Positions 46,867 to 63,675 of a stretch of DNA of 64,000 bases are shown one piece after another; position 1 is the stretch's first letter, and each line of letters opens with the position of its first letter. The notes below the pieces were generated by a model that did not search any database, had not been told where the DNA came from, and worked only from the letters and a program-made list of their open reading frames with translations. This DNA comes from Denitrovibrio sp. (lineage in GTDB: Bacteria; Chrysiogenota; Deferribacteres; Deferribacterales; Geovibrionaceae). Where the stretch lies: NCBI GenBank assembly GCA_002869145.1, contig PKTM01000026.1:62001-126000 (forward strand), written 5' to 3'. The position numbers and the translations under genes were made by a program.

Positions 46867-47340
46867 GCTCTTAAAAACCAGAAGCAGCATACTTATCTGA
46901 AGTCGGAATTCATCTTCGTGAACCAATATGGAGAGCCGTGGAAATCATCAGAACATATCATGCGTCAGGTTTGGAAACCTACACTAAAGAAGCTTGGCAT
47001 AGCTTTTAGGATTATTTATCAGTGCAGACATACTCACGCAAGCCTGTCTATTCTGGCAGGTGACAACCTTGCTCACATAGCTGAGCGTATGGGCCACAAA
47101 AACGTTGGTACAGTCATTACAAGATACGCAAAGTATGTGAAAGCAGTAGAGTTTCAGCAGCCCAAAATCGGGGCATTTCTTTCCTCAGAAAAACCTATCG
47201 ACAGCGAAGCTCGGAGCAGAAATGCATCCGATCATGATGCATTTTGTCAGAATGCTGTCAGAAACGAAAAAAGACCCCGTCATCAAACAATTGATAACAG
47301 GGTCCTTTTTAAAATGCCGAGAGAGAGACTTGAACTCTAA
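46867..47340 (+). pseudogene. Tyrosine recombinase, C-terminal fragment
   Basis: In frame from ALKNQKQHTYLKSEFIFVNQYG on, with the catalytic core at CRHTHASLSILAGDN (Arg-His) and MGHKNVGTVITRYAKYV (His, then Tyr). An in-frame stop at 46864 and no similar sequence upstream show the N-terminal half is lost. The final residues (MPRERLEL) are coded by the att-like site, the usual overlap of integrase gene and tRNA target. It is probably inactive. Confidence 0.8.
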
Positions 47341-47519: not shown

Positions 47520-49577
47520 TTATTGTTTATGAATATATTGTTTAATCGTGTTCCTTATTAAGATTATTAAATAGCCACCCATTATTGAATACAACCATTG
47601 CCAATTTTTTCTAACAAAACGATCAATATCTGCTAAATAGCTACTTTCAAAATTGCAACTGTAGCCCTTCTTAGTTTCTTCTACTGAATCTATATTATAG
47701 TTTTTTAAATAATACAGAGGCATAATAAGCCTTGTCTTGATTTTTTTGATTGTTTTATGGTTCTCAATTAAGCTTTTATATTGACTTAGTGATACTTTTC
47801 CTGAATTCAGTCCCCCTGTAATTGAAATATTGTTGTCACCCTGCTTATCATTAGCATCCATGCTCTTATCTGTAGCATTAATGTATTCTAAATAGGTTTC
47901 ATTACTATTAAGTATATCTCTTAGGGCATAGTCGAATTTATCACCAAGTTGAACTTGATCAACCTCTAATACTCCAGCAAAGAAAAAACTTTGCTTTGTT
48001 TTATATTGAACACTATTTTCTAACGCTTCAGAGACTCTACTATAAATAATATTGCCTATATCAAAATATCCACTCCCCTCAAGACATTCTGATATCTGCA
48101 GTTTTTGAAACTTTACTTTAGTAACCAGATCATTTTTTGAGTATATTTTAGGTTCTTTTATGCAGAAAACGCTATTATTGTTGATATGTAACTCATACTT
48201 AGAGCCGTAAGCTTTAGATATTAATCTTGGCATAGCCACCCCAACCTCAATAACTTTCTTGTCGTTTATCTCAAACTTATTATATAGTAATATCTTGGCA
48301 GGCTCAAAAACTGTGTTATTTACAAATATCAGGCTAAAGCTTAAATAGAGGAAGACTAATAATAATATTTGCATTGTTTTTATAGTAAAAAATTCTTTAA
48401 TCGAGTTTTGTTTATATTTAAAACCCAGCAACACAAGATAGAGTACTAGACTTAAAGCTACGACAATCTGAGTTATGAAAAATTTAGTTTCATAACGCAT
48501 AATATACCTTGTAAACCATTGTGCAATAGCTGCAACCACAAATATAGAAAAAACCACTCCAAATCGATTTGTGAAGTCTTTGTCTAATGTAAAGTATTTA
48601 CCTATATCAGATACTTGTTCTTTATCAAATAAATCATCGTAGTTAGACTTTTGTTTTTGTGCAATTGATTGTGTGCAATTAAGTTTGAAACCATGACATA
48701 ATGCAAACTTATATGATTCAGATAGTTGCCCAGCTTCGTCACAAATAAATAAGCTTTTGAATAGTTCTATCTTTTCCAGTTTTGATGTTTCATTTGCGTT
48801 AGATAATGCCAAGCAATCTTGTTCTTTAATATTTTTGACACAGTTTGCAAAATAGCCATTTAAGCTTGATTTAAATGTGTTGGACTTTATTAGATAGTCA
48901 TAATTTAATTTTTTGCAATTTTGAAATTTAAACTCACTGATTACATTTAAAATAATCTGAGGATTCCCTATGCATAACTTATGTACTTCTTCTATGTCAC
49001 TTGGTATTTTTAGACCATGATTGGTATATAACATCTTAAATTCATTAACTGTAAATGGTTCAATTTCGATAACTTCCACATTATTAAGAAACTCTTTTTC
49101 CCCAAATATATCTGTTATTTTTAGCTCACTTGTAATAATTAATTTGCCATTATTAGTCATTGATGAAGAAATATCTTCGAGACGTTCTATAGTAATAAAC
49201 TCCGAATTTCTATAGGTCAGACCTTCCAGTATCACTACCTTATTATGTAAATGTGCTAAGGAGGACTGAAAATCTAACGAAGAACTTAATCCCAAAGCCT
49301 TTAAGATGTTGGTATTTAAGTCATCAATACCTTTTATATCCCTTATTGAAACAAATATTGCTTTATCACTGTTTTGTATGGATTGTTGTAAATTTATTTT
49401 TTTTCCAGCACCCTTTTGACCATAAACATTTATTAAGTTTTTGGAGCCTAAGCTATTCTTTAACGTTTGTTGGCTTGATCTAATTAAAAATGTATTTTTC
49501 TTGTCAAATCCACTATCCCTGTCTTTTTTATCATTTTTTAAAAGACCAAAAATATTATGAATAAAATTGTTCATCAC
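47520..49577 (-). CDS. Membrane P-loop protein (STAND/AAA-like), third gene of novel operon
   Basis: 685 residues. A Walker A-like loop VYGQKGAGKK (52-61) ends GKK instead of GKS/GKT, and KVVILEGL (113-120) has Glu where Walker B has Asp, so hydrolysis may be impaired. A winged-helix-like stretch follows (190-300). Three helices (about 338-420) and one near the C-terminus (658-680) flank a ~230-residue, probably external region (EVGVAMPRLISKAYG). Its ATG overlaps the end of the pseudokinase gene (ATGA type), indicating translational coupling. I recognise no described family; a membrane partner of the ATPase is the simplest reading. Confidence 0.75.
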   Translation of the reverse strand: MMNNFIHNIFGLLKNDKKDRDSGFDKKNTFLIRSSQQTLKNSLGSKNLINVYGQKGAGKKINLQQSIQNSDKAIFVSIRDIKGIDDLNTNILKALGLSSSLDFQSSLAHLHNKVVILEGLTYRNSEFITIERLEDISSSMTNNGKLIITSELKITDIFGEKEFLNNVEVIEIEPFTVNEFKMLYTNHGLKIPSDIEEVHKLCIGNPQIILNVISEFKFQNCKKLNYDYLIKSNTFKSSLNGYFANCVKNIKEQDCLALSNANETSKLEKIELFKSLFICDEAGQLSESYKFALCHGFKLNCTQSIAQKQKSNYDDLFDKEQVSDIGKYFTLDKDFTNRFGVVFSIFVVAAIAQWFTRYIMRYETKFFITQIVVALSLVLYLVLLGFKYKQNSIKEFFTIKTMQILLLVFLYLSFSLIFVNNTVFEPAKILLYNKFEINDKKVIEVGVAMPRLISKAYGSKYELHINNNSVFCIKEPKIYSKNDLVTKVKFQKLQISECLEGSGYFDIGNIIYSRVSEALENSVQYKTKQSFFFAGVLEVDQVQLGDKFDYALRDILNSNETYLEYINATDKSMDANDKQGDNNISITGGLNSGKVSLSQYKSLIENHKTIKKIKTRLIMPLYYLKNYNIDSVEETKKGYSCNFESSYLADIDRFVRKNWQWLYSIMGGYLIILIRNTIKQYIHKQ

Positions 49578-51811
49578 TTAATCCTTGATTTAATGTAGTA
49601 TCTATAGAAAGGTATTGATAGTACAGCTGTGGTATTATTTTCCTTAAAAATATTTGCTTCAATTAAGTTTGTAATTTTTCGATAAGTAGTGTCAATATCG
49701 GCACTGCTTCCTTCAGCTATCGCTTTCCAGAAGTCTAGATCCTCATTGAAATCGATATCACTGAATATACCTTCAATACCGTCAATTTGTCTAAAATTTA
49801 ACCTAGACATCACGTATTCTATTAGGTTGCAATCAATAGTTATTTTTTGGTTTTTATTAATTAAAACAACAAGTTCGTATATTACATGTAACGCATAAAG
49901 AGGGATTCCATTAGTTTCATTTAATATTTTGTCATATATGTCAGAAGATAAGACTAATTCTGAGAGTAGCCTGTTTTCAATTAATGTTCTAAGATGCTCT
50001 GTTTTAAAAGCATTAAGTTCAATTATATCAAACCCGTCAGCTTTAATGTTTGCAATTGATTTTTTTGTGTCGGTCATTACAACAAAGATTGTGCAGGCTA
50101 CTTTATTTTCTTTTAAAATATTTATTAAGGACTTTAGAGGAGAGCTTAAATTCTTTAGGTTGTTGAACTTTAAGGTGTGATCAGTGCTGTCTATAAAAAT
50201 ATTTATCGGAACTTTAATATTTTTTTTATTCTCGGTAATAAAAGCTGCAAGCTTTGTTAGTTCCATGTTACCATTTGATGCATAATCAGTATGCCTTTTA
50301 ATAATACTATTAAAAAAGATATGGTGGGCCTGTAGTTGAGAGTATATGCGTTCAGAGAGAATATAAAATATAGTTGTTAACGTATCGCTTTCTTCTATGG
50401 TGATGCTGTCAAAATCAATATATATCTGTATAGAATTATTATTCGCTCTAAGCGTATGTTTTACATACTGAACGAGAGTCGTCTTGCCTGCTCTTTTGGG
50501 TGCTATTATCATTGTGTGGTTATTTGTGTTTACATTATGAATCATCATTGATATTTCATCTTCTCTTCCATAAAGTTCATTTGTCCATACGCTACTTTTG
50601 GGATGTATATTTAATATATTTAAAAACGGCTCAATTTCTTCTATTTCTGCTCTTAATAATGACAACTCTGGTCGGTCTGTAATTCTAGTTTTTTTACATT
50701 TTTCGAAAATAAGCCTGCTTGGTTTGTCAACATTTATCATAATTGTTCTGAAAGATTCTGGCTCAAATGGTGGGTCAATGCTAAATTCAAGATAAGAAAC
50801 TAATATTCCCAGTAAATAAACGCACGTCTTTTCATAGTCAACATGATTAAAATAGTCATTTAATATCAAACTCCTTTCTTTTGTGTTTTTATTTCTGAAT
50901 TCTGGTGTTTGAAAGTATTGCTTTTGCAGTTTTATTTTATCAGCAATTATTAAATGATCCATTTTGAGCTTATTGATTTCAGTGGCACATAATCTAAAAT
51001 CCAGTTCATCTTTAAGTAGCTTCTCTTTGTTAATAAATATGTTATCCATATAAAAATTAAGCAGATAGCTTTTTTTATCTTTGGCTTTATTACAGAAATC
51101 AATTAAACTTAGAAGTAATAGTTTAGTCTTTTTCTCAGACCACTGACCTTTTTTTACAAGTTGCATTAATGGGATATAATTATCTAAATATTCTTCATAA
51201 AGAAAAACAATTTTCTTTCTTTTCTTTTTGATTTGGTAAGAAGGCTTCTCTAATGGAGTAGCTAGTGGAAAATCTTCAACTTTTACAGGAAAATCATCAA
51301 ATACAATTTCACTATATTTTGCAATTCGTAATATTGCCTTCGTATTATTCTGTTTATTTATAACCAAGAAGGTATCAAAAGCGTTATTTTCGCTTAATAC
51401 TTCTATAATTGAGTATTTATTATCAATTTTATCAGAAATTTTATAATGTTTATATACTGTTTGCAGAATGATAGTTTCAATTTCGTTTTTATATGTGTCT
51501 TTACTAGTATTATTGCAAAGAAATCGAAGCAAAGATATTTTCTCGGTAATTGTCTTGATGTTTTTGTTACATAGAAATTTTTTGATGTTTTTAGAGAGCT
51601 TGTCTGGTTCACAATCAAGCATCTTTAACAAGTCTGAGCATTTTGACTCATAAATGTAGCTGTGTTCATTTTCCTTAAAACTTAAAGTGTAATAACACAT
51701 TACTATCAGCTTAAATATATATTTATTATTTTTTTTATTTATTGCATAGATTTTAAGAATTGAGTACATCATTTCAAAGAGAAGTAGCTTTTTCTCATTT
51801 ACTTGTTGCAT
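49574..51811 (-). CDS. Pseudokinase fused to Orc1/STAND-like ATPase, second gene of novel operon
   Basis: 745 residues. Residues ~131-380 follow a protein-kinase fold: a beta-strand start (NKYSIIEVLS), a lost VAIK-type Lys (TKAILRIAK), a catalytic-loop equivalent LNFYMDNIFI (251-260) with HRD lost, DFRLC (271) for DFG, QTPEF (301) for APE, and VYLLGILVSYLEF as helix F. It thus lacks key catalytic residues. Residues 412-~690 form an ATPase: ELYGREDEI (GRE box), Walker A IIAPKRAGKTTL (435-446), Walker B-like INIFIDSTDH (536-545), and a C-terminal winged-helix region. Kinase-ATPase fusions such as PknK exist; with a dead kinase and these neighbours I know none. Strongly AT-rich. Confidence 0.78.
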   Translation of the reverse strand: MQQVNEKKLLLFEMMYSILKIYAINKKNNKYIFKLIVMCYYTLSFKENEHSYIYESKCSDLLKMLDCEPDKLSKNIKKFLCNKNIKTITEKISLLRFLCNNTSKDTYKNEIETIILQTVYKHYKISDKIDNKYSIIEVLSENNAFDTFLVINKQNNTKAILRIAKYSEIVFDDFPVKVEDFPLATPLEKPSYQIKKKRKKIVFLYEEYLDNYIPLMQLVKKGQWSEKKTKLLLLSLIDFCNKAKDKKSYLLNFYMDNIFINKEKLLKDELDFRLCATEINKLKMDHLIIADKIKLQKQYFQTPEFRNKNTKERSLILNDYFNHVDYEKTCVYLLGILVSYLEFSIDPPFEPESFRTIMINVDKPSRLIFEKCKKTRITDRPELSLLRAEIEEIEPFLNILNIHPKSSVWTNELYGREDEISMMIHNVNTNNHTMIIAPKRAGKTTLVQYVKHTLRANNNSIQIYIDFDSITIEESDTLTTIFYILSERIYSQLQAHHIFFNSIIKRHTDYASNGNMELTKLAAFITENKKNIKVPINIFIDSTDHTLKFNNLKNLSSPLKSLINILKENKVACTIFVVMTDTKKSIANIKADGFDIIELNAFKTEHLRTLIENRLLSELVLSSDIYDKILNETNGIPLYALHVIYELVVLINKNQKITIDCNLIEYVMSRLNFRQIDGIEGIFSDIDFNEDLDFWKAIAEGSSADIDTTYRKITNLIEANIFKENNTTAVLSIPFYRYYIKSRIK

Positions 51812-51913
51812 AGTTAAACGCTTTATGGTTCTAAGTTTGAATAGATTTTTTATTCTGATTTTAAAAGTGGACTTTAATAAGATCCCAACAACAAAATTAG
51901 ATATTTCTTTTAA

Positions 51914-53998
51914 TTATTTTTTTTCTGAACTTGTATAGTCATATTCAAGGCCTTTGCTCAAGATGCTGAATGTTTTCTCGTTTATCTCGCTTATGACAGC
52001 ATTAATATTACTTATATATTGTTCTACGATAAAAGCGAAATATGCTTTATGTACCAATTGGTTATATTTTTTTGTATCAGTGAAATTGCAGTATTCATTT
52101 TTGAAAGTATCTATCCCTATTTTTTTAATACTCTTTTTACATTCTTCTATATTTTTGTTTTTCTTTTTATTTTTTAGTATCAAATAAATAATTGGAGAAA
52201 GTAGTATTAAGAATATTATTAAAACTAACACGATCATTTGTGCAAAATAGATAATAATCGTTTTTTGGGGTAGAATTTCGTAGTCAACGAGTTTTTGCCT
52301 TTGCTCTCGGCTTGTTCCGGTTGTTATATAGTAAAGTTTATCTTTCCTTGCAAATAGCTTTTTATATAACGCAAGTTCCCTTTTAAAAGAGTCATACATA
52401 TCAATAATACTTCTATCTGTTGGATATTTAGATAAGTAAGATCTGATATAAGCTTGCTTGGAGTTATCTTCGAAGTTTTCTTTATTATACTTAAGCATTT
52501 GTATGATTCTTTTTCTGGTTGATAAAGAATAGCGTAAACCATAATGGTTGACGTCGATATATTTTAACTTTGGATAGGCTTTACCTAGCTCAATAATATT
52601 GTTGTTGATGTCTAGTAAATAGATATTCTTATCTGAACTTCCAAAGTCAATAATATTCTTATATTTTTCCAAATATTTATATTGACCAGTTTCTAAATCA
52701 AAAACAATTAGCTTATTACTGTCTAAAGTAGTAGCAGGTATAAGTATTTGATTATGGCTTATATATTCAGGTTCAGTATGATTTCCAAGTTCTAATACTT
52801 TTTCTTTTGATGCTGAAGATAGTAATTCCTCTAAGTCATAGATATACAAGAAGCTGTTATTTGTTTGCGAGTCAGATGTAAATAATAATGATTTTGATGT
52901 ATTATTATTAAAAGAGAGTATTTTGCTAATGTATTTTTCATCGAAAGAATTTGTGTCTTCTGTAAGTTTAACTTCATTCAGTTTTATTTCTTTATTACTA
53001 CGAAATATGTCTTTATTTTCTATTGCTATATGTAATATAAAGCCAGATGAGTATGTTGGTGCAAGTAGTAAAACCTTATTATCTATTTTATTTCTGAGAA
53101 CTTTAAGTTCTTCACTGATACTATAGTTATCTATATCAATACTGTTTACCGTTATTTCATTACTATTTATTTCACCAAATACAATGCGTGATGTGATATC
53201 TTTATTACTTATTTTATTATTGTTTTTGCTACTTTCGTTAGTCTCTCTACGTTCATTTGTTGAGAGTTCTGCTGTGCCATGATACATATTGGTATTGCTT
53301 GCAGTATTTTCAGTTTCATCACTGTCGGCCTGTTTCCCTTTTTCATGATCGTCTTTCTCTATCTTTATGTCTTTTGATAAGTAATATGCCCAAAAATATA
53401 CTATTTTGTTTTCTATTATTTCTAAAACAGGGTTTTTTCGTGCTATCCCATTAAAATCAGCTGATATTGTTTTGCCTTTTTGAAGATAAATTTTTAATTC
53501 TGATTTTGCTTTAATGTTATTGTAATATCCAACCACTATGTCAAGTTTACTGTCTTGGTCTATATCAAGCATTATTGGCTTACCTGTGATGTTGCTTTTA
53601 GTAGTAAATTTTCCTATTTCGTTTAATCGGCATAAATCATAGATGTAAAGGTCGCTTTGAATAGGTACTGTCTTATTGTTAGCAGAGTAATTCTTACCAA
53701 ATATCACATCCGGGTTTCCATCAGAATTATAATCATATATCAGAGGTTTGAATGCACTAGATCTCATTGAATTGTCTGCAGAATCATGTCTGCCTATTGA
53801 TGTACAGTTATTATTAATTGTTTTATTCTCACAAAGATGAATATCTCCATTTGTGTTTTGTATAATAAAAGCATCTTTATCACTCATACTAATAGGGACA
53901 ATATACATTGCAGATAATTTTTCAGTGCTAGCGTGTGTATTTTGAATAGGTACAGAAAGTATGCAAAATAGTGTTGTTAAAAGGATATAAAACCTCAT
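51914..53998 (-). CDS. Exported FG-GAP-like membrane protein, first gene of novel operon
   Basis: 694 residues. Signal peptide (MRFYILLTTLFCILSVPIQNTHAS). Two calcium-binding FG-GAP/VCBS motifs, DYNSDGNPD (89-97) and DIDQDSKLD (145-153), suggest an integrin-alpha-like beta-propeller. A linker with low-complexity Asn/Lys/Glu follows, further beta-rich sequence, then a transmembrane helix (about 580-608) and a basic, coiled cytoplasmic tail (609-694). The large domain is therefore outside and the tail inside, as for a receptor. It is 102 bp upstream of the pseudokinase-ATPase gene and probably shares a promoter upstream of 53998. Confidence 0.78.
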   Translation of the reverse strand: MRFYILLTTLFCILSVPIQNTHASTEKLSAMYIVPISMSDKDAFIIQNTNGDIHLCENKTINNNCTSIGRHDSADNSMRSSAFKPLIYDYNSDGNPDVIFGKNYSANNKTVPIQSDLYIYDLCRLNEIGKFTTKSNITGKPIMLDIDQDSKLDIVVGYYNNIKAKSELKIYLQKGKTISADFNGIARKNPVLEIIENKIVYFWAYYLSKDIKIEKDDHEKGKQADSDETENTASNTNMYHGTAELSTNERRETNESSKNNNKISNKDITSRIVFGEINSNEITVNSIDIDNYSISEELKVLRNKIDNKVLLLAPTYSSGFILHIAIENKDIFRSNKEIKLNEVKLTEDTNSFDEKYISKILSFNNNTSKSLLFTSDSQTNNSFLYIYDLEELLSSASKEKVLELGNHTEPEYISHNQILIPATTLDSNKLIVFDLETGQYKYLEKYKNIIDFGSSDKNIYLLDINNNIIELGKAYPKLKYIDVNHYGLRYSLSTRKRIIQMLKYNKENFEDNSKQAYIRSYLSKYPTDRSIIDMYDSFKRELALYKKLFARKDKLYYITTGTSREQRQKLVDYEILPQKTIIIYFAQMIVLVLIIFLILLSPIIYLILKNKKKNKNIEECKKSIKKIGIDTFKNEYCNFTDTKKYNQLVHKAYFAFIVEQYISNINAVISEINEKTFSILSKGLEYDYTSSEKK

Positions 53999-54261
53999 CT
54001 TCCACCTCTATATAAGAATCATAATTATATACATATAAAAATGACTAGAGCAACACCTAAGGTGTGTTTATTTAACTTTGTGTTATTTTCACATGTAGAA
54101 AGCTTGTGAGTAATCCGGATCAAATTACCCCATAAGTCCGGAGCTTGGAAACCGCCATTCCGTCTAAATGGAAACCGCTGTACCGATGCTTGGAAACCGA
54201 TAATAACTCATTAGAATGTATGTATGCGCAAAGTCGCAAATACATTTTAGGAGTTGTCACG

Positions 54262-55829
54262 ATGACAAAGTATCGAGAAATCTTACGGCTGAGTGAGCAA
54301 GGCTTCAGCCAGCAGAACATTGCCTACAGCTGTGGAGTATCAAAGAAAACGGTAAACAAAGTTCTTAAAAGAGCTGCAGAGATCAATCTGAGCTGGCCAC
54401 AGTATGCGGAACACAAAACCGACGGCGAACTATGTGAGCTGCTTTTTCCCAAAAATCAAGAATCCCATACCAAAAGCGCCTACCGGATTACGAGTATATC
54501 CGGAAAGAACTCTTGAAAAACGGAGTCACTAAAAAGCTTTTATGGACAGAGTATATGGAAGAGTGTCGGCTAAACAGCGACGAACCTCTGATGTATTCCC
54601 AATTCTGCCACTATGCCCAGCAGGACGAACAAAAACGTCGGGCAACTATGCACATCAACCGAAAGCCAGGAGAGCAGATAGAGGTCGACTGGGCAGGAGA
54701 TCCGGCTCAGATTGTAGATCCAGATACCGGCGAGGTAGTATTAGCACATGTTTTTGTAGGAGTGCTGACATACAGTCAGTATGCCTACGTTGAAGCCTTT
54801 TTAAATGAAAAGACATCCTCTTGGATAAGTGCACATGTGCATATGTTTGACTTTTTTGGCGGCGCAGCAAAAATGCTAGTGCCGGATAATTGCACTACGG
54901 CGGTAAACCGTGGCGGTGATTGGTATACTCCTCAGCTTAACACTACTTATCATGAAATGGCCGAGCATTATAATACGGCCATAATTCCCGCAAGAGTTCG
55001 TAAGCCGAAAGACAAACCCTCTGTTGAGGGAACAGTTGGCAACATATCAACATGGATAACCGCCGCCTTACGCAATGAGCAGTTTTTTTCTTTGGCTGAA
55101 TTGAATGCAGCAATATCTAAAAAGCTTTCAGCCTTTAATTCGAAGCTATTCCAGAAGAAAGACAGCAGCCGTATCAATCTTTACCGTAATGAAGAACTGC
55201 CTTCGCTTATGCCTCTTCCCCAGACGCCATATGAGCTTGCCAGGTGGAAACAGGCAACGGTACAGTTCAATTACCACATATCAGTAGAAACTATGATGTA
55301 CTCAGTTCCCTATGAGTATTTGAAGCGGAAAGTAGATGTCAGAATAACCGATAAGATTGTTGAAATCTTCTACAAACACACCCGAATAGCATCTCATCTG
55401 CGGCTATACGGCAGAAAAGGTCAGTACAGCACAACAGTTACACATATGCCCGCAGATCATCAAAAGTATCTTGAGTGGAACGCCGACAGATTCAGAAAAT
55501 GGTCAAATCAAATAGGAGACAACACCGCCAAAGTTGTCGATGCGATTTTATCATCAAGCAAAGTAGAGCAGCAAGCTTATAGAAGTTGCATGGGACTACT
55601 TAAGCTATCAGATAAATATACTGCCGCAAGACTTGAAAAAGCATGCATCAAGGCCCTGTCATACACTGCTTCCCCCAGTTACAAGAGCATTAAGAACATC
55701 CTTGCCACTACTAAGGATAAGTCCTTGAATGATTCCGGTAACAGTGATGAGCAGAAGGATATACGGGGCATCACCCGTGGCTCCGATTATTACGGGAGGT
55801 CGAAGGTATGGCAAATCAAAGTACTATAG
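54262..55829 (+). pseudogene. istA: IS21-family transposase IstA, one-base frameshift
   Basis: Start at 54262 (MTKYREILRL; AGGAG site). An N-terminal helix-turn-helix (YSCGVSKKTVNKVLK) is followed by an open frame to 54516; the rest is in the -1 frame from about 54470 (RIPYQKRLPDYEYIRK and VTKKLLWTEYMEECR). Adding one A to the AAAAA tract at 54452-54456 restores a continuous ~520-residue product with the DDE core (EVDWAGDPA, PDNCTTAV, KDKPSVEG). So a homopolymer deletion, or programmed or transcriptional slippage, separates the parts. Confidence 0.85.
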
Positions 55830-56584
55830 ACAAACTTATTTCTATGCGTCTGACAGCTATGGCAGATGCCTTCCGAGCCGGACTGACAGATATTAAAATG
55901 AAAGAGATCCCCTTTGAAGACAGGTTTAGCATGCTTGTGGATATAGAGTGGAACAGTCGTAAAAATAATCGGCTGAGGCGGTTAATCCATAACGCCTCTC
56001 TGGAACAATCAGACGCAAGCATCGCCGACATAGATTATGTCTCTGGCAGGAAGCTTAATAAAGAGCTGATTATGAGGCTGGCTTCCTGTGAATACATAGC
56101 TGAATACCGCAATCTCTTTATTACTGGAGCTACGGGAAGCGGAAAAACATACATGGCCTGTGCCTTTGGAATGGAGGCATGTAAACAGTATTACAATACG
56201 AGATATGTTCGTCTGCCTGATCTGCTTATCGATCTTGATATTGCCAGAAACGAAGGCACATACAAAAAGACGATGGCAAAATACTCAAATCCGATGCTGT
56301 TAATTATAGACGAATGGCTACTTCTCAAGCCCAATGAAAATGAGCGCAAAGACATCTTCGAGCTTCTGCACCATCGGCTAAAGAAATCGTCTACAATTTT
56401 ATGCTCACAATACTTACCTGAGGACTGGTACGAACAGCTTGGCGGTGGTGAAGGACCTCTTGCTGACGCCATCCTCGACAGGGTAATTCATGACGCATAT
56501 AAAATTAACATCGTCAGCGTGGATCAATCAAGAGACATTTCAATGAGAGAGGTATATGGATTGGATAAATCTATTTCTGAATAA
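55808..56584 (+). CDS. istB: IS21-family helper ATPase IstB
   Basis: 258 residues, AAA+ helper of the transposase. Walker A is TGATGSGKTYMA, Walker B is MLLIIDEWLLL and the sensor region is DAILDRVIHDAYKI. The ATG has a GGGAGG site and overlaps istA by 22 bp. The gene is intact. Confidence 0.95.
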   Translation: MANQSTIDKLISMRLTAMADAFRAGLTDIKMKEIPFEDRFSMLVDIEWNSRKNNRLRRLIHNASLEQSDASIADIDYVSGRKLNKELIMRLASCEYIAEYRNLFITGATGSGKTYMACAFGMEACKQYYNTRYVRLPDLLIDLDIARNEGTYKKTMAKYSNPMLLIIDEWLLLKPNENERKDIFELLHHRLKKSSTILCSQYLPEDWYEQLGGGEGPLADAILDRVIHDAYKINIVSVDQSRDISMREVYGLDKSISE

Positions 56585-56955: not shown

Positions 56956-57861
56956 TTATTTCTTACTTCGACCTTTACGCTCTGCAATCTCAGGGACACT
57001 GTCAGCTGCCGCTATGATAGTTTTTGTAGTACCTAAGTCTCCGATATATTTATCCGCTAAGCTTGCAATAGTCTTCCCCGTCCGTTTGCTTTCATCAATC
57101 ATATCCTGAATAACATCACCAGAGATACCCTCAGGACTGTTTGCTTGAATAAAGGTAGAAAAGTGATATGTCCCCTCGCTACCATCTGAAGCAATAGAAC
57201 TATCGATAATTTCATCAGGATCCAACGACAACGCATCCTGCATACCTGAACCACCGGCACCACCTAAGCTATAGGAAGCCGGAATACTATCATCCTGCGT
57301 AATACTAATATTAAACAAATCTTCATCGCTAAAACGTATATGGTGGCTATTAAATTTTATGAAAATCTGTCCGTCTATTTTCATCTGAAAATGATAGTGC
57401 GGAAAGCTTGCCTGAGTTCCTTCATGACCAGCATAATCACTATGAGTACAACTAAAAGTCCACTCGATGTTTTTCCACTTGATAGTGCTCTCAATAAGCA
57501 TATTATCACGCTTTTCCTCTTGCAAATCGTTTATGTTTCTCTGAAAACACTCTGTGTTTGCTATCCATCTCAAGAAAGATACTATCTGATGATAATTATA
57601 TTTTTTATATATTTTATGAAAATCTTTTGCCCTAAACTTACATTGTCTCAACAACCAATGAAGGCAAGGGTTATTAGTGCTTATAGTCTTAAATGGTTTA
57701 CCGCAAAGATAACAAATCCCATTATCATAGGCATCAATAAACCTTTTATACTCATCTTGGTATTTTTCATGTTCTTTGTCATTAATTTGTTTAATATCTT
57801 CCTCAGAGAACTGGCTCATAAATGATATGATATCTTCTATATTTGGCTTACTCATTAACAC
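56956..57861 (-). CDS. Uncharacterised protein with N-terminal zinc-finger-like motif
   Basis: 301 residues, cytoplasmic. After an acidic start, CYLCGKPF and CLHWLLRQC supply CxxC and CxnC pairs that could bind zinc. The middle (FPHYHFQMKIDGQIFIKFNSHHIRFSDED) is His/aromatic-rich. The C-terminal third has Gly/Ser and Asp-rich stretches and a helix (VIQDMIDESKRTG) before a basic tail. I do not recognise the family. It is the last of three minus-strand genes that include the nuclease-STAND ATPase, with a 102-bp gap, so its membership in that system is only likely. Confidence 0.65.
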   Translation of the reverse strand: MLMSKPNIEDIISFMSQFSEEDIKQINDKEHEKYQDEYKRFIDAYDNGICYLCGKPFKTISTNNPCLHWLLRQCKFRAKDFHKIYKKYNYHQIVSFLRWIANTECFQRNINDLQEEKRDNMLIESTIKWKNIEWTFSCTHSDYAGHEGTQASFPHYHFQMKIDGQIFIKFNSHHIRFSDEDLFNISITQDDSIPASYSLGGAGGSGMQDALSLDPDEIIDSSIASDGSEGTYHFSTFIQANSPEGISGDVIQDMIDESKRTGKTIASLADKYIGDLGTTKTIIAAADSVPEIAERKGRSKK

Positions 57862-57963: not shown

Positions 57964-58911
57964 CTAGCCACTGCTAATAATCAATTCAATGTTTGTTATT
58001 CCTACATCCCTGAAATGCACTGGTTTAATTACCTCATTACTGATTGTAGTTCTAGGGTTATCCTCTATCCAAGGAAGAACGAAAATACAAAATGAGTTAG
58101 ACTTATCAAAATTTATAGACTCGATAGGGATATTAAATTCTGATACTTGCTTATCTCTCATAGAATATGTCTTCGATGGTATTAACGAAACATAGTCATT
58201 TATCTGAAAATAGTAATTCTCTGATTGTCCAGGTCTTAATCCGCCATGAAAAGTATCAATAAGAATCTTAACTTTTAGTTTGTCATCTGGAGAAATGCCA
58301 TTTTTAGCTAATATCGACCCTAAACTAAATGTTTTAAACAAAGCTATGGCTGCGTATTGACGGTAAAAGTTCCCCTTTAGTTCACTGGAGCTAATTAGAA
58401 AATTACCAGGGCTCAGTTCAATACTATTTTCTGAATATTTAGAGTACTTCTCATTAAAGTCTTTATCATTAGCTGAAATTGTTTGCACATACTTATATGC
58501 GCTAAAGTCCAACCCTTCTATTATCTTAGAGTATTCTGAAATCCACTTATAAACTACTTGCGTATTAACTGATTTATCTCCTTTAAAACTATTGTTTTCT
58601 TTATCAAAATAAATGATCCCCTTTTCTTCTTGGGGAAAGATATCAAGATTGTCGGGATTATAATTTGTCCCTGCTATACCAGGAAAGATGTTATCTCCTA
58701 AATGAACCTCAGTGCTTTCCAGCAAGCTTAGACTAACGGCTTTATCTTCTTGAACATAGTTATATACGATATTCCCTTCAGCATAAGTATTGTTATCACC
58801 ATTTATAGTAACGATTTCCTTATTGTAATTACTCAGGCTAAATATTCCTGTAACAACTGCGGCAATTATTACTGCTGCTGCACCAATTAAGGCAATTTTA
58901 TAATCTTTCAT
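57964..58911 (-). CDS. Membrane-anchored protein, partner of nuclease-STAND ATPase
   Basis: 315 residues. One N-terminal helix (IALIGAAAVIIAAVVTGIFSL) then a soluble region opening with INGDNNTYAEGN, beta-rich (QNYYFQINDYVSLIPS-like) and without known catalytic motifs. Its start overlaps the ATPase stop by four bases (ATGA), so they are probably co-translated. The role is unknown; a membrane-tethered accessory or effector is possible. Confidence 0.7.
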   Translation of the reverse strand: MKDYKIALIGAAAVIIAAVVTGIFSLSNYNKEIVTINGDNNTYAEGNIVYNYVQEDKAVSLSLLESTEVHLGDNIFPGIAGTNYNPDNLDIFPQEEKGIIYFDKENNSFKGDKSVNTQVVYKWISEYSKIIEGLDFSAYKYVQTISANDKDFNEKYSKYSENSIELSPGNFLISSSELKGNFYRQYAAIALFKTFSLGSILAKNGISPDDKLKVKILIDTFHGGLRPGQSENYYFQINDYVSLIPSKTYSMRDKQVSEFNIPIESINFDKSNSFCIFVLPWIEDNPRTTISNEVIKPVHFRDVGITNIELIISSG

Positions 58912-61900
58912 TCCTCATCCTTATAAAAGTTATCATCTGTCCAATACTCACCCTGAATTCCTGTTTCATCGCACCAGTAAAAACCACCAATCTTCTTTAG
59001 GCCTTTGTGTCGTAAGGTAAAATTATTAAACAACATCTTTTCTCCTAATATAAACCAAACAAGCATTAAATCATTATCATTGAGCCACCTTTCAAAATAT
59101 ACTTTATCAATCAGCGCAAAGTCAGACGAATCAGGCTCGTTCTCAAAGTTAATAAATACATCTTCACCATTTGAGTCTACCCATGTTCCGGGTTTATCTA
59201 GATCTTTTTGTAACCTAAGCTCTTCAATCAAATATGGTGATGGGCAATAAAAAGAGAGACGTGACTCAATTGATTTATCTTTGTTGTATGAATCCCATTC
59301 ATAATTTCTCAGTATTGGTAAGAGAGGAACTTTAATATTCGGATATTCACTATCATAATATTTATCCTGCTCTGGTTCAGTCCATAAAGGGCTAGAGTCC
59401 TCAAAAGTTTCTCTCCAGGGATATTCGCCATAATACAAGCCACTCGAGACATTATAATGTGTGTTAGGATTATCATTGTAGAAGTACTTCCCTTTGGTCT
59501 CTTTAATTAGCTGTCCTAAGTCTTTTTTGTATATTACTATAGACTTGACAATGAACCAAAAATCACGTTTAGGCTCTTCCTTATCACAACCAAAATTATA
59601 ATAACCGTACAATATGCTCCAAAACCGTGAATTAGCATCTTTTGCCAATAGGAGTTTCTTTATATCTGGAATATCACTCTCAGACTGTATCCAATCCTCT
59701 TTTTCTTTAGTATTCTGAGCACCATAAGGGCGATGGTTGAAAATACTCATTTTCTGATTATTACGAGGATAGCAAAGGATGGAAGGATCGATATTGTGCA
59801 TATATATATCAGAGATATTTTCAAAAATGCCAAAAACAGCTTCTGAAGAATACTTATCAACTTCATAATAGAATTTATCAGCTAAATGGGCTAAAAATTC
59901 ATAAAGCCCAATGTACATATATTTTTTATTGAATCGCTCGGTATTATACCTCTCACGCCCAAAGTTACCTGCAAGATATCTTTCTGCAGCCTCGAACAAC
60001 ACCTTATCATAGCCAATATCATTTACTTTTTGACAAATCCATCTAGCAGCCCATTGCCTGCTAAATCTTGCATATCCACCATGTCTACCAGCACCACTTA
60101 ACCATCTATAATATTCAGCATCCTTGCTGGAAATAGTATCTGTGAAAGCTGTCGTAGCAACTCTCTTTCGCTCCCAGCTATCATCTGAGCTTGATACAAA
60201 TTCTATCTGTATATTGTCCAATTTTGAGGCTTTTTTTAATAACCTTTCCCTTTTTGCTTCCTCTTCTATTTCAGATTCAACATGCACCATATTATTATAT
60301 GCCTGCATTTGAGCTTCATTTAAAGACTCTATAAACGGTTCCATTAATTCTGAAACAGTTTTTGGCCGGACCTCTTTTAGAGGTGTTGCGAACCAATCAT
60401 GAACTTGATTAAGCTCATGTTTGCAAAAATCGCTAAAAGTGCTTTTCAGAGTATGCCAAGTGTCACCAAGCTTTTCATCTAGCTCTTCTATTTCAGATAT
60501 CTCAGGATCATGTAGTTCGAAATCGTTATCATATGGGGGAGTAATATTTTTTATTACATCTTCATCTTGTATTAATCCCAAATATATAGCGTATTCAATT
60601 ATTCCTTTAGCATAATGCCTGAGCATTATATTGGGGCATGGGGAGTGGTTCGAGAATACGAAATCATATGTTATATCTGCTATCGATTTAATTGAGTTTT
60701 TATCGTCAATATTTAATACAAGACCATATGCTATTGCATAAAGCCTTTCAGTTACATAAGGATCATTAACATCATTGAATTGTTTAATTAGCTGCATCAT
60801 TGAGATAGGAAATTTCAGCAAAATTGATATTGCTGCTTTAGTACATTTGTCGCGTATTAATCTATTGTTAGTTGACGTAGCCCAAATTAGCACTATTGAA
60901 CATAGCTCAACTGTCACTTGATCTGTATTGCAATGGTTTGCTTTCCATGCCCAGTTTATAATTGTCTTAAGCGCACTATGCTCATCTTCTTCCATCGTAA
61001 ACCTTGCTATATCTTTTGACCAAAGCAAATCTCTATCAATTATAGACATAGTTATAAGGCGATCGTGAAGATATTGGGCATTTAGGGGATGATCCTGTAT
61101 TGGAGATAACATAAGTAGAACATCAAGTTTCTCGAACTCGTCAACTTCTAAATTCTTGAATACATTAATCGTACTTTTATTAACTGAACTAGGTTTACGC
61201 CATAATAAACTTTCAATAAAGGCCTCTTTAAAAATATAATAATCATACCCTGCTTCTGGATCTACTAGTTCAACTAACTCAATATTATACTTTTCTGGGA
61301 CTAATACGCTAAGTTCTTCGATAATACCAGCATACCTAGAGGGTTCTTCAAGAACTACCGTCTGCAACTTTGCATCATCCTTGATTGCTACTTTAAGTGC
61401 ATCTAGATTATTTATGTCTTTAAGAAGCTCTTTTGTAATAATATGATCACTAAATCTCTCAAATGAAAAACGTATAAATTTAACACCATCAAAGTCATCA
61501 TCATCTGTGTAAACAACATCTTCAGCTAATGCGCCCTCATCAATTAGAAAATATAGCAATGATTGATTATAGTTATTTGCAGGTAGTACATTGTTTAAGA
61601 GTTCATATGTCTCATTTTTCGTTAAACGAAAATAATTATGATGCAACATTTCTTTGGCTAATTTATTCAATCCAACTGAAACAATTCGGCTATCAGGGTC
61701 TGATTTATATTTTAACACTGCCTTCTCATCTAAAGTTTCTAAATAAAATTCAAATATTGTATTTTTACTTCCAAGACCTTTAGGAAAGGATGTTAGGCCT
61801 CGATTTAAAAGCCCTTCAGTACATATCTTTAACATCAAGGGATTCGAGAATTCGGGAGCTAATATAGGCATCGCTGGTCGCTGAAGTCCTTGTTTGTCTA

Positions 61901-63419
61901 AATATATTTCTGCAGCTTTTTCTTCATAACCTTCAAAACCATATTGAATAATTTGAGGTAAAATATCTTCATTAAAAAGAGTCTTACCTAAAATGTTCTT
62001 TAAAAAAGTGTCTCTGCAGCTAAAAACAATTGCAAGGTTATCAAAACGATCAATTTGTTGTAATATGGAAGGTATATACTCCTTCCATGTAGAACTATGC
62101 TCACCTTCATTTATTGCATCTATCAAAATTAAAGTTCTTATGCCTTTAGCTTTTCCTGCTGCGTCCAGCGCACCAAGGATAGTATCAACAGGGTATTGCC
62201 TCAAATCAAGATTTTCAATAATGTTACTCCAAGGATTTACGCCCCTGTAGTGCCATCCTGGAAATAATACAACAGGCAGCTTAGATTCAATAAATTTAGT
62301 CGCGATATCACACATAAGATGTGACTTTCCAGAACCTGCTCGCCCAGTTAAAATAGCCTTTTTTTCTATAAACAATCTCATACTTAGAGTACCAATGTAA
62401 TACTTTAAATCAGAAAAGGTCGATTTTATTGCATAAAGAATTCTTACTAAATTATCTGCTACCTCGTCTTTATTAGGTTCTTCCATTGCGATAGTTGATA
62501 ATAGCTCAATATATAATTGATTCTCTTCGATATTTCGTTGATAAAACGTCCCGACAGTATTATCACAAATACTAAGAACCTTTGCAGAATTTTTTAAAAT
62601 GTATTCTTTTGATAAGTATTTATTAATTTCAGAAATTGGACTGCTCAAGAACTCTAAAATTTTGGATTTTATAACAACCGGAACTTTGAAATCTCTCCAA
62701 ATTGAGCTTGATTCTAATTCACATAACTCATTTAGCTGTATTTCTAATTTTGTCCAAAATTCTGGATGGGATGAAACAGCATATAGTTCCTCAATAATAG
62801 GCAACTCGACATTAAGTTCAGGAGTATATCTTTCTCCAAATGCTGCGCGAGACTCTTCATATCTATTATAGAAATATTCATCAGTAAAATATGTGAGTCC
62901 AAACCAGTATAACAACTTGCCCGTATATCCTGGCTCGCTATTGCTCAGCTTACTTATCAGCTCAGATGCCCCCCAATAGACAAACTCGACATTCTCACTT
63001 GTCATTCCTTTCCATTCCTCTACATGCTTGTCCCATTCTTTAAGCATGGAGTTATATTTTTCACCACTTTTTGTTATTTTTCTTGAGTCTGTTCTGTCTA
63101 AAGGTATACAAATATAATATTTTGTAGTACTAGGATGTTTTTATGAAAATGCTTTTACAGATTTAGTTACTTGTGCCCATTTATTGGAGTCCATACCATC
63201 AGGAAAATATTTCGCCTGTAGAGAATACTCTTTCCCATCAGGTAGCTTCCAATAACATTAAACTCCACCATCTCCCACTGCTCCTTCTTTCCGAATATAA
63301 GTGGCATCAGGATGTGGGGGTTCCATACTGAAAAGTTGACAACAAAGCTCTTCAAAACCTATGTTCTGACTTCCAGCGTGTGGTCTGATTTTTTTAAAAT
63401 CAACATTAGGTAACTGCAT
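58908..63419 (-). pseudogene. Mrr-like nuclease fused to STAND ATPase (Avs-like), two in-frame TAA stops
   Basis: Reading from ATG 63419 gives 1503 codons. The N-terminal domain is a PD-(D/E)xK restriction nuclease: GFEELCCQLF, GAVGDGGV, then EYSLQAKYF (E-x-Q-K type), CIPLDRTD and the terminal VEFVYWGASEL. Codon 54 (63258-63260, after GDGGV) and codon 93 (63141-63143, after KAFS) are TAA; homologous sequence continues in frame. In related proteins I expect Glu at both. From Met 63047 on (1379 residues) the frame is open: Walker A LTGRAGSGKS, Walker B LILIDAINEGE, then helical repeats and a C-terminal domain of unknown fold. Likely an anti-phage Avs-like gene, with the nuclease possibly disabled. 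Confidence 0.78.
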
Positions 63420-63675
63420 GTGTAATTATAAGAATTTACAATCATGAATTGCAAGTCTAAAACACCTATATTGCGACAAATAATTTACTTTCACACAGAG
63501 TTATTCTCAAAGTTGGGAGATTTTTGCTTTATGGCATTACAGACAAATATTCTATAAATCATTAATACTCATTATCCCCCTCATACATGGAAAGATGTAT
63601 CCGTATATGATATTATAATAAATTGCCTATTGAATAAGTAGGTAAAATCAAATCCACTAAAAAGGTTAATAAGTT

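What the first reader, a model, noticed from the sequence alone, without database searches (positions are those of the whole stretch)
47520..53998. Undescribed three-gene system: exported FG-GAP receptor, pseudokinase-STAND ATPase, membrane P-loop protein
Seen: three co-directional genes, two overlapping by ATGA. The first has a signal peptide, two FG-GAP calcium motifs, a transmembrane helix and a cytosolic tail. The second joins a kinase-fold region lacking the HRD and VAIK residues to a GRE-box/Walker A ATPase. The third is a membrane protein with a degenerate P-loop (GKK) and a large outside region. Known: STAND ATPases act as signal-triggered switches in defence and signalling, and FG-GAP propellers act as extracellular ligand domains. 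Inferred: a trans-envelope sensor that relays to an ATPase switch. The island setting (integrase remnant, IS21, a nuclease-STAND neighbour) fits defence or inter-cell recognition.
Basis: partly seen in the sequence, partly recalled or inferred. Interest (0 to 1): 0.88.

Follow-up and report, generated by a model that had tools for sequence, protein, structure and literature searches.

The report
Orphan receptor-pseudokinase-ATPase genes in defence island
Three neighbouring genes in a bacterial anti-virus gene island appear to encode an outward-facing receptor, a dead-kinase/ATPase switch and a membrane partner; none has a detectable relative in the genomes searched (about 1,180 for the switch), so this is a plausible but unproven new defence or signalling module.

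Summary
The three genes are real and intact: A (51914-53998), B (49574-51811), C (47520-49577), all minus strand, 28.7% GC in a ~41% GC genome. A has a signal peptide, two Ca-type FG-GAP loops (none of 5,000 shuffles gives two), one TM helix and a basic tail. B has a kinase-like region (126-395) lacking the canonical Lys, HRD and alpha-F Asp, then a STAND/NPHP3_N ATPase with intact Walker A, DxxD and GxP. The kinase call is supported, not proven: whole-profile alignment z~6 against shuffles, best of 301 segments; a no-alignment AlphaFold model (pLDDT 37) retrieves mostly kinase N-lobes. C is a four-TM protein with a ~230-aa outer domain; its P-loop is only weakly supported. The defence-island setting is firmer than first read: Avs2 next door (1,114 bits; its nuclease part broken by two stops), PD-T7-5 further on, IS21, integrases. 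But no homologue was found (B in about 1,180 genomes; A and C in 51; all three in plasmids and phages), so 'a conserved three-gene system' is unshown. Best reading: a membrane-linked STAND switch, defence role likely but inferred. Unexpected: A and B share a frame, separated only by a stop and 34 open codons, and B lacks a Shine-Dalgarno.

The parts
51914..53998 (-). Gene A, 694 aa: signal peptide, FG-GAP ectodomain, helical juxtamembrane part, one TM, 83-aa cytosolic tail
   Evidence: ORF; SD AGGTGG, dG -7.6; Pfam FG-GAP_3 E 4.9e-5
53927..53998 (-). A residues 1-24, signal peptide (MRFYILLTTLFCILSVPIQNTHA|S)
   Evidence: read directly from the sequence; no signal-peptide predictor available
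53531..53734 (-). A residues 89-156: two FG-GAP Ca loops DYNSDGNPD (89) and DIDQDSKLD (145)
   Evidence: PF13517 and PF01839; 0 of 5,000 shuffles has two loops
52175..52267 (-). A residues 578-608, transmembrane helix
   Evidence: hydropathy 3.25
51812..51913 (-). 102-nt A-B spacer, open for 34 codons in the frame shared by A and B
   Evidence: open in frame by chance 0.034 for its composition; longest upstream open run of 29 genes; not coding-like
49574..51811 (-). Gene B, 745 aa: helical N-terminus, pseudokinase-like region, STAND ATPase, C-terminal winged-helix-like end
   Evidence: ORF; no Shine-Dalgarno, dG -0.1
50627..51436 (-). B residues 126-395, pseudokinase-like region (Lys to R162, HRD to LLN252, alpha-F Asp to C330; N257, D271, P303-E304, R380 kept)
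   Evidence: whole-profile alignment z about 6, rank 1 of 301; longest hhalign stretch, 144 columns; Foldseek list mostly kinases, E 0.06
49772..50581 (-). B residues 411-680, STAND / NPHP3_N ATPase: GRE 415-417, Walker A 437-444, D541xxD544, G635xP637
   Evidence: PF24883 27.3 bits against cut-off 24.8
49577..49771 (-). B residues 681-745, winged-helix-like end
   Evidence: by eye
47520..49577 (-). Gene C, 685 aa: N-terminal degenerate P-loop region, three TMs, ~230-aa outer domain, probable fourth TM; overlaps B by GTGA
   Evidence: ORF; SD AAGGA, dG -5.2; TMs
48933..49445 (-). C residues 45-215, possible degenerate P-loop NTPase (GQKGAGKK 53-60, E118 at Walker B, CIGNP 202-206)
   Evidence: AAA_22 E 0.066, below cut-off; small STAND profile z 0.8: weak
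48306..48566 (-). C residues 338-424, three TM helices
47610..48305 (-). C residues 425-656, predicted outer domain, fold unknown
   Evidence: topology inferred from TMs and charges
54145..56584 (+). IS21-family element (HTH protein, transposase, IstB) just upstream of A
   Evidence: PF22483 E 4.5e-20, IstB E 1.7e-51
58908..63047 (-). Avs2 (AVAST type 2) in the same island; N-terminal nuclease part upstream is broken
   Evidence: PADLOC Avs2 1113.7 bits; NF041813 814 bits, below its 1000-bit cut-off
46918..47340 (+). tyrosine-integrase remnant (C-terminal part only)
   Evidence: PF00589 E 0.0031, profile 112-167 of 172

Best explanation
The trio is horizontally acquired cargo of a defence island and most likely encodes a membrane-anchored STAND switch. 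A is a single-pass receptor whose exported FG-GAP propeller faces the periplasm or outside. C is a membrane partner with its own outer domain and a probably non-hydrolysing P-loop region. B is the cytosolic switch: its STAND ATPase (intact Walker A, DxxD, GxP) would change state or oligomerise when A and/or C report a signal, and its dead kinase-like region would serve as a docking or adaptor surface in place of the usual enzymatic effector. As no nuclease, TIR, protease or other toxic enzyme is visible, the output would be C's membrane segment (permeabilisation) or recruitment of a host protein. Shown: gene integrity, topology motifs, FG-GAP loops, STAND motifs, loss of kinase catalytic residues, island context. 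Inferred: that the proteins act together, the trigger, the output and the antiviral role.
For: Intact codirectional ORFs with B/C overlap. FG-GAP, STAND, pseudokinase. Two known defence systems in the same island, Avs2 and PD-T7-5, with IS21, Mutator transposase and integrases. GC 28.7% against about 41% and absence from 51 genomes of the phylum. General knowledge: STAND ATPases such as Avs act as oligomerising antiviral switches.
Against: No homologous trio anywhere, so co-function is not shown by conservation. No recognisable effector. B lacks the C-terminal repeat sensor usual in STAND proteins. C's P-loop is weakly supported. Structure models are low confidence (pLDDT 37 and 33). B has no Shine-Dalgarno, so its expression is uncertain. 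The neighbouring Avs2 is broken, so the island may be decaying.
Confidence: 0.4

Rival explanations
1. An envelope- or surface-sensing signalling module, not antiviral: A and C read an extracellular ligand, Ca2+ or a cell contact and B relays it to transcription or to envelope repair.
For: Exported FG-GAP receptor with a TM and a second outer domain; no toxic effector found. The animal FG-GAP membrane protein LINKIN binds the AAA+ ATPases RUVBL1/2 at the inner membrane face (PMC4275582), a precedent for such a pairing.
Against: Sits between known defence genes and mobile elements; absent from all relatives, unlike housekeeping signalling.
Confidence: 0.25
2. A and B derive from one polypeptide (receptor, TM, pseudokinase, STAND), now split by a stop codon through mutation, or joined by readthrough; the functional unit is then two proteins, A-B plus C.
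For: A and B are in the same frame with only A's stop and 34 open codons between; chance about 0.034 for openness, times 1/3 for frame, about 0.011; longest upstream open run of 29 genes; B has no Shine-Dalgarno whereas A and C do.
Against: The spacer is not coding-like (LLR -4.1, equal to the null), though 34 codons have little power. A ends in an ordinary hydrophilic tail. Some host genes in the window also lack a Shine-Dalgarno.
Confidence: 0.15
3. Decaying or passenger DNA: three fast-evolving orphan genes left in a degrading mobile island, with no current common function.
For: No homologues; the neighbouring Avs2 nuclease part has two in-frame stops and the adjacent integrase is a remnant.
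Against: Three ORFs of about 700 codons stay open at 29% GC; Walker A, DxxD, GxP, Ca loops and two Shine-Dalgarno sites are intact.
Confidence: 0.15

Closest known systems
Avs / AVAST STAND antiviral proteins (Avs2 lies in the same island)
   Same: Large STAND P-loop ATPase in a defence island.
   Different: Avs proteins carry their own effector (nuclease, protease or other) and a large C-terminal sensor in one chain (general knowledge); B has neither, and has a pseudokinase-like N-terminal region plus two membrane partners. PADLOC finds no Avs match in B.
PknK-type Ser/Thr kinase-ATPase fusions
   Same: Kinase region directly followed by a GRE-box P-loop ATPase (architecture from general knowledge).
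   Different: B's kinase-like region has lost Lys, HRD and alpha-F Asp; no C-terminal repeats; sits with membrane receptor genes. A PknK sequence was not compared here.
LINKIN/ITFG1 and integrin-alpha FG-GAP membrane proteins
   Same: Exported FG-GAP Ca-loop propeller, one TM, short tail; LINKIN's tail binds AAA+ ATPases RUVBL1/2 (PMC4275582).
   Different: Only two canonical Ca loops recognised in A, not seven; no sequence relationship beyond the repeat. The bacterial integrin-type propellers analysed in PMC3192720 lack a TM helix.
MADS system protein mad8
   Same: Best PADLOC match of B, over the GRE/Walker A stretch 417-507 (E 1.2e-4).
   Different: Only 91 residues; no other mad match in the trio; generic ATPase similarity.

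Membership tests
STAND NTPase (NPHP3_N / NACHT-like) - B | GRE box, Walker A, NACHT-like DxxD, GxP motif | tested here: met
   GRE415, APKRAGKT437-444, D541xxD544, G635xP637; PF24883 27.3 bits against 24.8 in the genome scan, 24.5 bits in the whole-protein scan
STAND NTPase - B | C-terminal repeat or sensor domain (usual, not universal) | tested here: not met
   B ends about 65 aa after the ATPase; no Pfam repeat
Hanks-type protein kinase fold - B 126-395 | profile-level similarity over the whole domain | tested here: inconclusive
   no Pfam kinase hit at E 5; whole-profile z about 6, rank 1 of 301, one decoy close at 5.7; hhalign score rank 34 of 410 but longest aligned stretch; Foldseek top hits kinases, E 0.06, pLDDT 37
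Active protein kinase - B | VAIK Lys, HRD Asp, DFG Asp | tested here: not met
   Lys replaced by R162, HRD by LLN252; D271 kept
FG-GAP / integrin-alpha propeller - A | FG-GAP repeats with DxDxDG-type Ca loops | tested here: met
   PF13517 E 4.9e-5, just below cut-off; two Ca loops
FG-GAP / integrin-alpha propeller - A | seven blades | tested here: inconclusive
   only part of the ectodomain matches; model pLDDT 33, many of the top Foldseek hits are propellers but E above 1
P-loop NTPase - C | Walker A and B, profile match | tested here: inconclusive
   GQKGAGKK and E118 read by eye; AAA_22 E 0.066; small STAND profile z 0.8
AVAST (Avs) system - trio | match to Avs models | tested here: not met
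   no Avs hit for A, B or C
Any defence system in PADLOC 2.0.0 | trio matches a system | tested here: not met
   only mad8 over 91 residues of B, and DruA at E 0.078 for C
Conserved three-gene system | same three genes adjacent in other genomes | tested here: inconclusive
   none found: B in about 1,180 genomes, A and C in 51, all three in plasmids and phages; single-sequence searches miss remote orthologues
Antiviral function | protects against phage | not testable with these tools
   context only: Avs2 and PD-T7-5 in the same island

The most novel reading that the evidence does not exclude
A bacterial receptor-pseudokinase-STAND immune module: an exported integrin-like FG-GAP receptor and a second membrane protein trigger a STAND ATPase through a pseudokinase adaptor, so that infection or contact is sensed outside the inner membrane rather than by an intracellular viral protein.
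Probability: 0.2. Interest if true: 0.85.

Novelty: new variant of a known kind. Interest (0 to 1): 0.48.

Why it matters
The bacterial STAND immune proteins I know of (Avs, bNACHT; general knowledge) sense phage proteins inside the cell. A STAND switch tied to an exported propeller receptor through a dead kinase would extend the scheme to sensing at the envelope and would be a bacterial counterpart of receptor-pseudokinase-NLR pairings in plant immunity. It would also give a concrete candidate for a new defence system in a poorly sampled phylum.

Tried and rejected
Homologue hunting: viral contigs with A, B, C and a synthetic-variant alignment of B, genome contigs with B and a second synthetic-variant alignment (the tool kept two patterns and not Walker A), plasmids and phages for all three, E. 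coli DNA, 51 phylum genomes for each protein, 385 domain-wide plus 397 and 396 genomes of two phyla for B (a third phylum had only 7 genomes): only generic ATPases or chance. Solved-structure sequence search: nothing. Single-sequence AlphaFold: low confidence. hhalign in global mode did not separate B from decoys. STAND profile on C: no support. A 16S-pattern search meant to find a Campylobacterota centre matched nothing. An empty-site comparison in the family failed because the adjacent host genes are not conserved there either. Literature searches for FG-GAP with STAND or defence islands gave no such system.
Full report
Observation. They form a 6.5-kb block of 28.7% GC against about 41% in the flanking chromosome. 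A and C have good Shine-Dalgarno sites (-7.6, -5.2) and B has none (-0.1). The B/C overlap is GTGA or TGATG depending on C's start, not ATGA.

Gene A. Signal peptide, then FG-GAP_3 (E 4.9e-5) and FG-GAP (E 1.9e-4), both slightly under the curated cut-offs. Two DxDxDG-type Ca loops at 89 and 145 occur together in 0 of 5,000 shuffles. One TM near 578-608 and an 83-residue basic tail. A no-alignment AlphaFold model is poor (pLDDT 33) and its Foldseek matches, many of them propellers, are not significant. Propeller is therefore likely, blade number unknown.

Gene B, ATPase. GRE 415-417, APKRAGKT 437-444, D541xxD544, G635xP637; NPHP3_N above its cut-off in the genome scan. This is a STAND-type P-loop ATPase. 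Unlike typical STAND proteins it has no C-terminal repeat sensor.

Gene B, kinase-like region. Pfam gives nothing. I built a kinase profile from 28 bacterial Ser/Thr kinases taken from other genomes. A local HMMER score is at noise level. hhalign gives a collinear alignment of 144 columns from the glycine loop to DFG, the longest and highest in summed probability of 407 segments that are not kinase controls, although its score ranks only 34th of 410. Aligning the entire profile end to end gives z about 6 over shuffles and rank 1 of 301 real segments; reversing the profile or the sequence removes the signal (z -0.6); one decoy, which I read as a valyl-tRNA synthetase piece, reaches 5.7. The single-sequence AlphaFold fragment has pLDDT 37, yet most of its 50 best Foldseek matches are protein kinases (best E 0.06, probability 0.99, over the N-lobe). 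Together these support a highly degenerate kinase fold, not proven. By position Lys is R162, HRD is LLN252 and the alpha-F Asp is C330, while N257, D271, P303-E304, YLLG332-335 and R380-P381 are kept: a pseudokinase if the fold is right.

Gene C. Three TMs at 338-424 and a probable fourth near 658-680 put about 230 residues outside. The N-terminal P-loop (GQKGAGKK, Walker B with E118) matches AAA_22 only at E 0.066, and a small STAND profile did not support it. Its NTPase nature is tentative.

Setting. Upstream lie an IS21 element and Avs2 (1,114 bits). Beyond the window come a Mutator transposase, PD-T7-5 (E 2.6e-114) and three phage-type integrases; downstream is an integrase remnant. This is a defence island by content. 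In the same frame upstream of the Avs2 ORF its N-terminal nuclease part can be read but holds two in-frame stops, so Avs2 looks inactivated there and the island may be partly decayed.

A-B junction. A and B share a frame, separated by A's stop and 34 open codons. The chance is about 1% including frame, and B lacks a Shine-Dalgarno, but the spacer's codon usage is not coding-like. A split receptor-pseudokinase-STAND fusion is possible and not established.

Distribution. No homologue of A, B or C in 51 genomes of the phylum, in plasmids or phages; B gives only generic ATPase hits in 385 genomes across Bacteria and in 397 and 396 genomes of two phyla that I take, from their proteins, to be Campylobacterota and Bacteroidota. 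The pattern scans of viral and genome contigs are insensitive. Two of these scans used alignments whose extra rows were synthetic variants of B that I generated to widen the search patterns; those alignments (A1, A2) are not evidence of conservation. Absence is therefore evidence of rarity or fast divergence, not proof of uniqueness. I infer that the host is a Deferribacterota species from genome traits; no name was given.

Verdict. I place it as a new variant of a known kind (STAND-based switch), interest 0.48.

Noticed in passing
window 63048-63420 (-) and 58908-63047 (-): Avs2 (1,114 bits) with its Mrr-like nuclease N-terminus readable in the same frame but interrupted by two in-frame TAA stops; looks inactivated or split.
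   Followed up: partly
L063:4287-5345 (+), just beyond the window (genome C23 about 130287-131345): PD-T7-5 homologue, PADLOC E 2.6e-114, in the same island.
   Followed up: partly
window 57964-58911 (-) and 56956-57861 (-): Two unknown ORFs downstream of Avs2; the first, with an N-terminal hydrophobic anchor, overlaps the Avs2 end by 4 bases. Possible Avs2 accessory or separate cassette.
   Followed up: no
window 51812-51913: A and B in one frame with an open 34-codon spacer; B without a Shine-Dalgarno.
   Followed up: partly
L063:5575-6735 (+): Peptidase_C92 (YiiX-like) protein in the island, E 5.8e-8.
   Followed up: no
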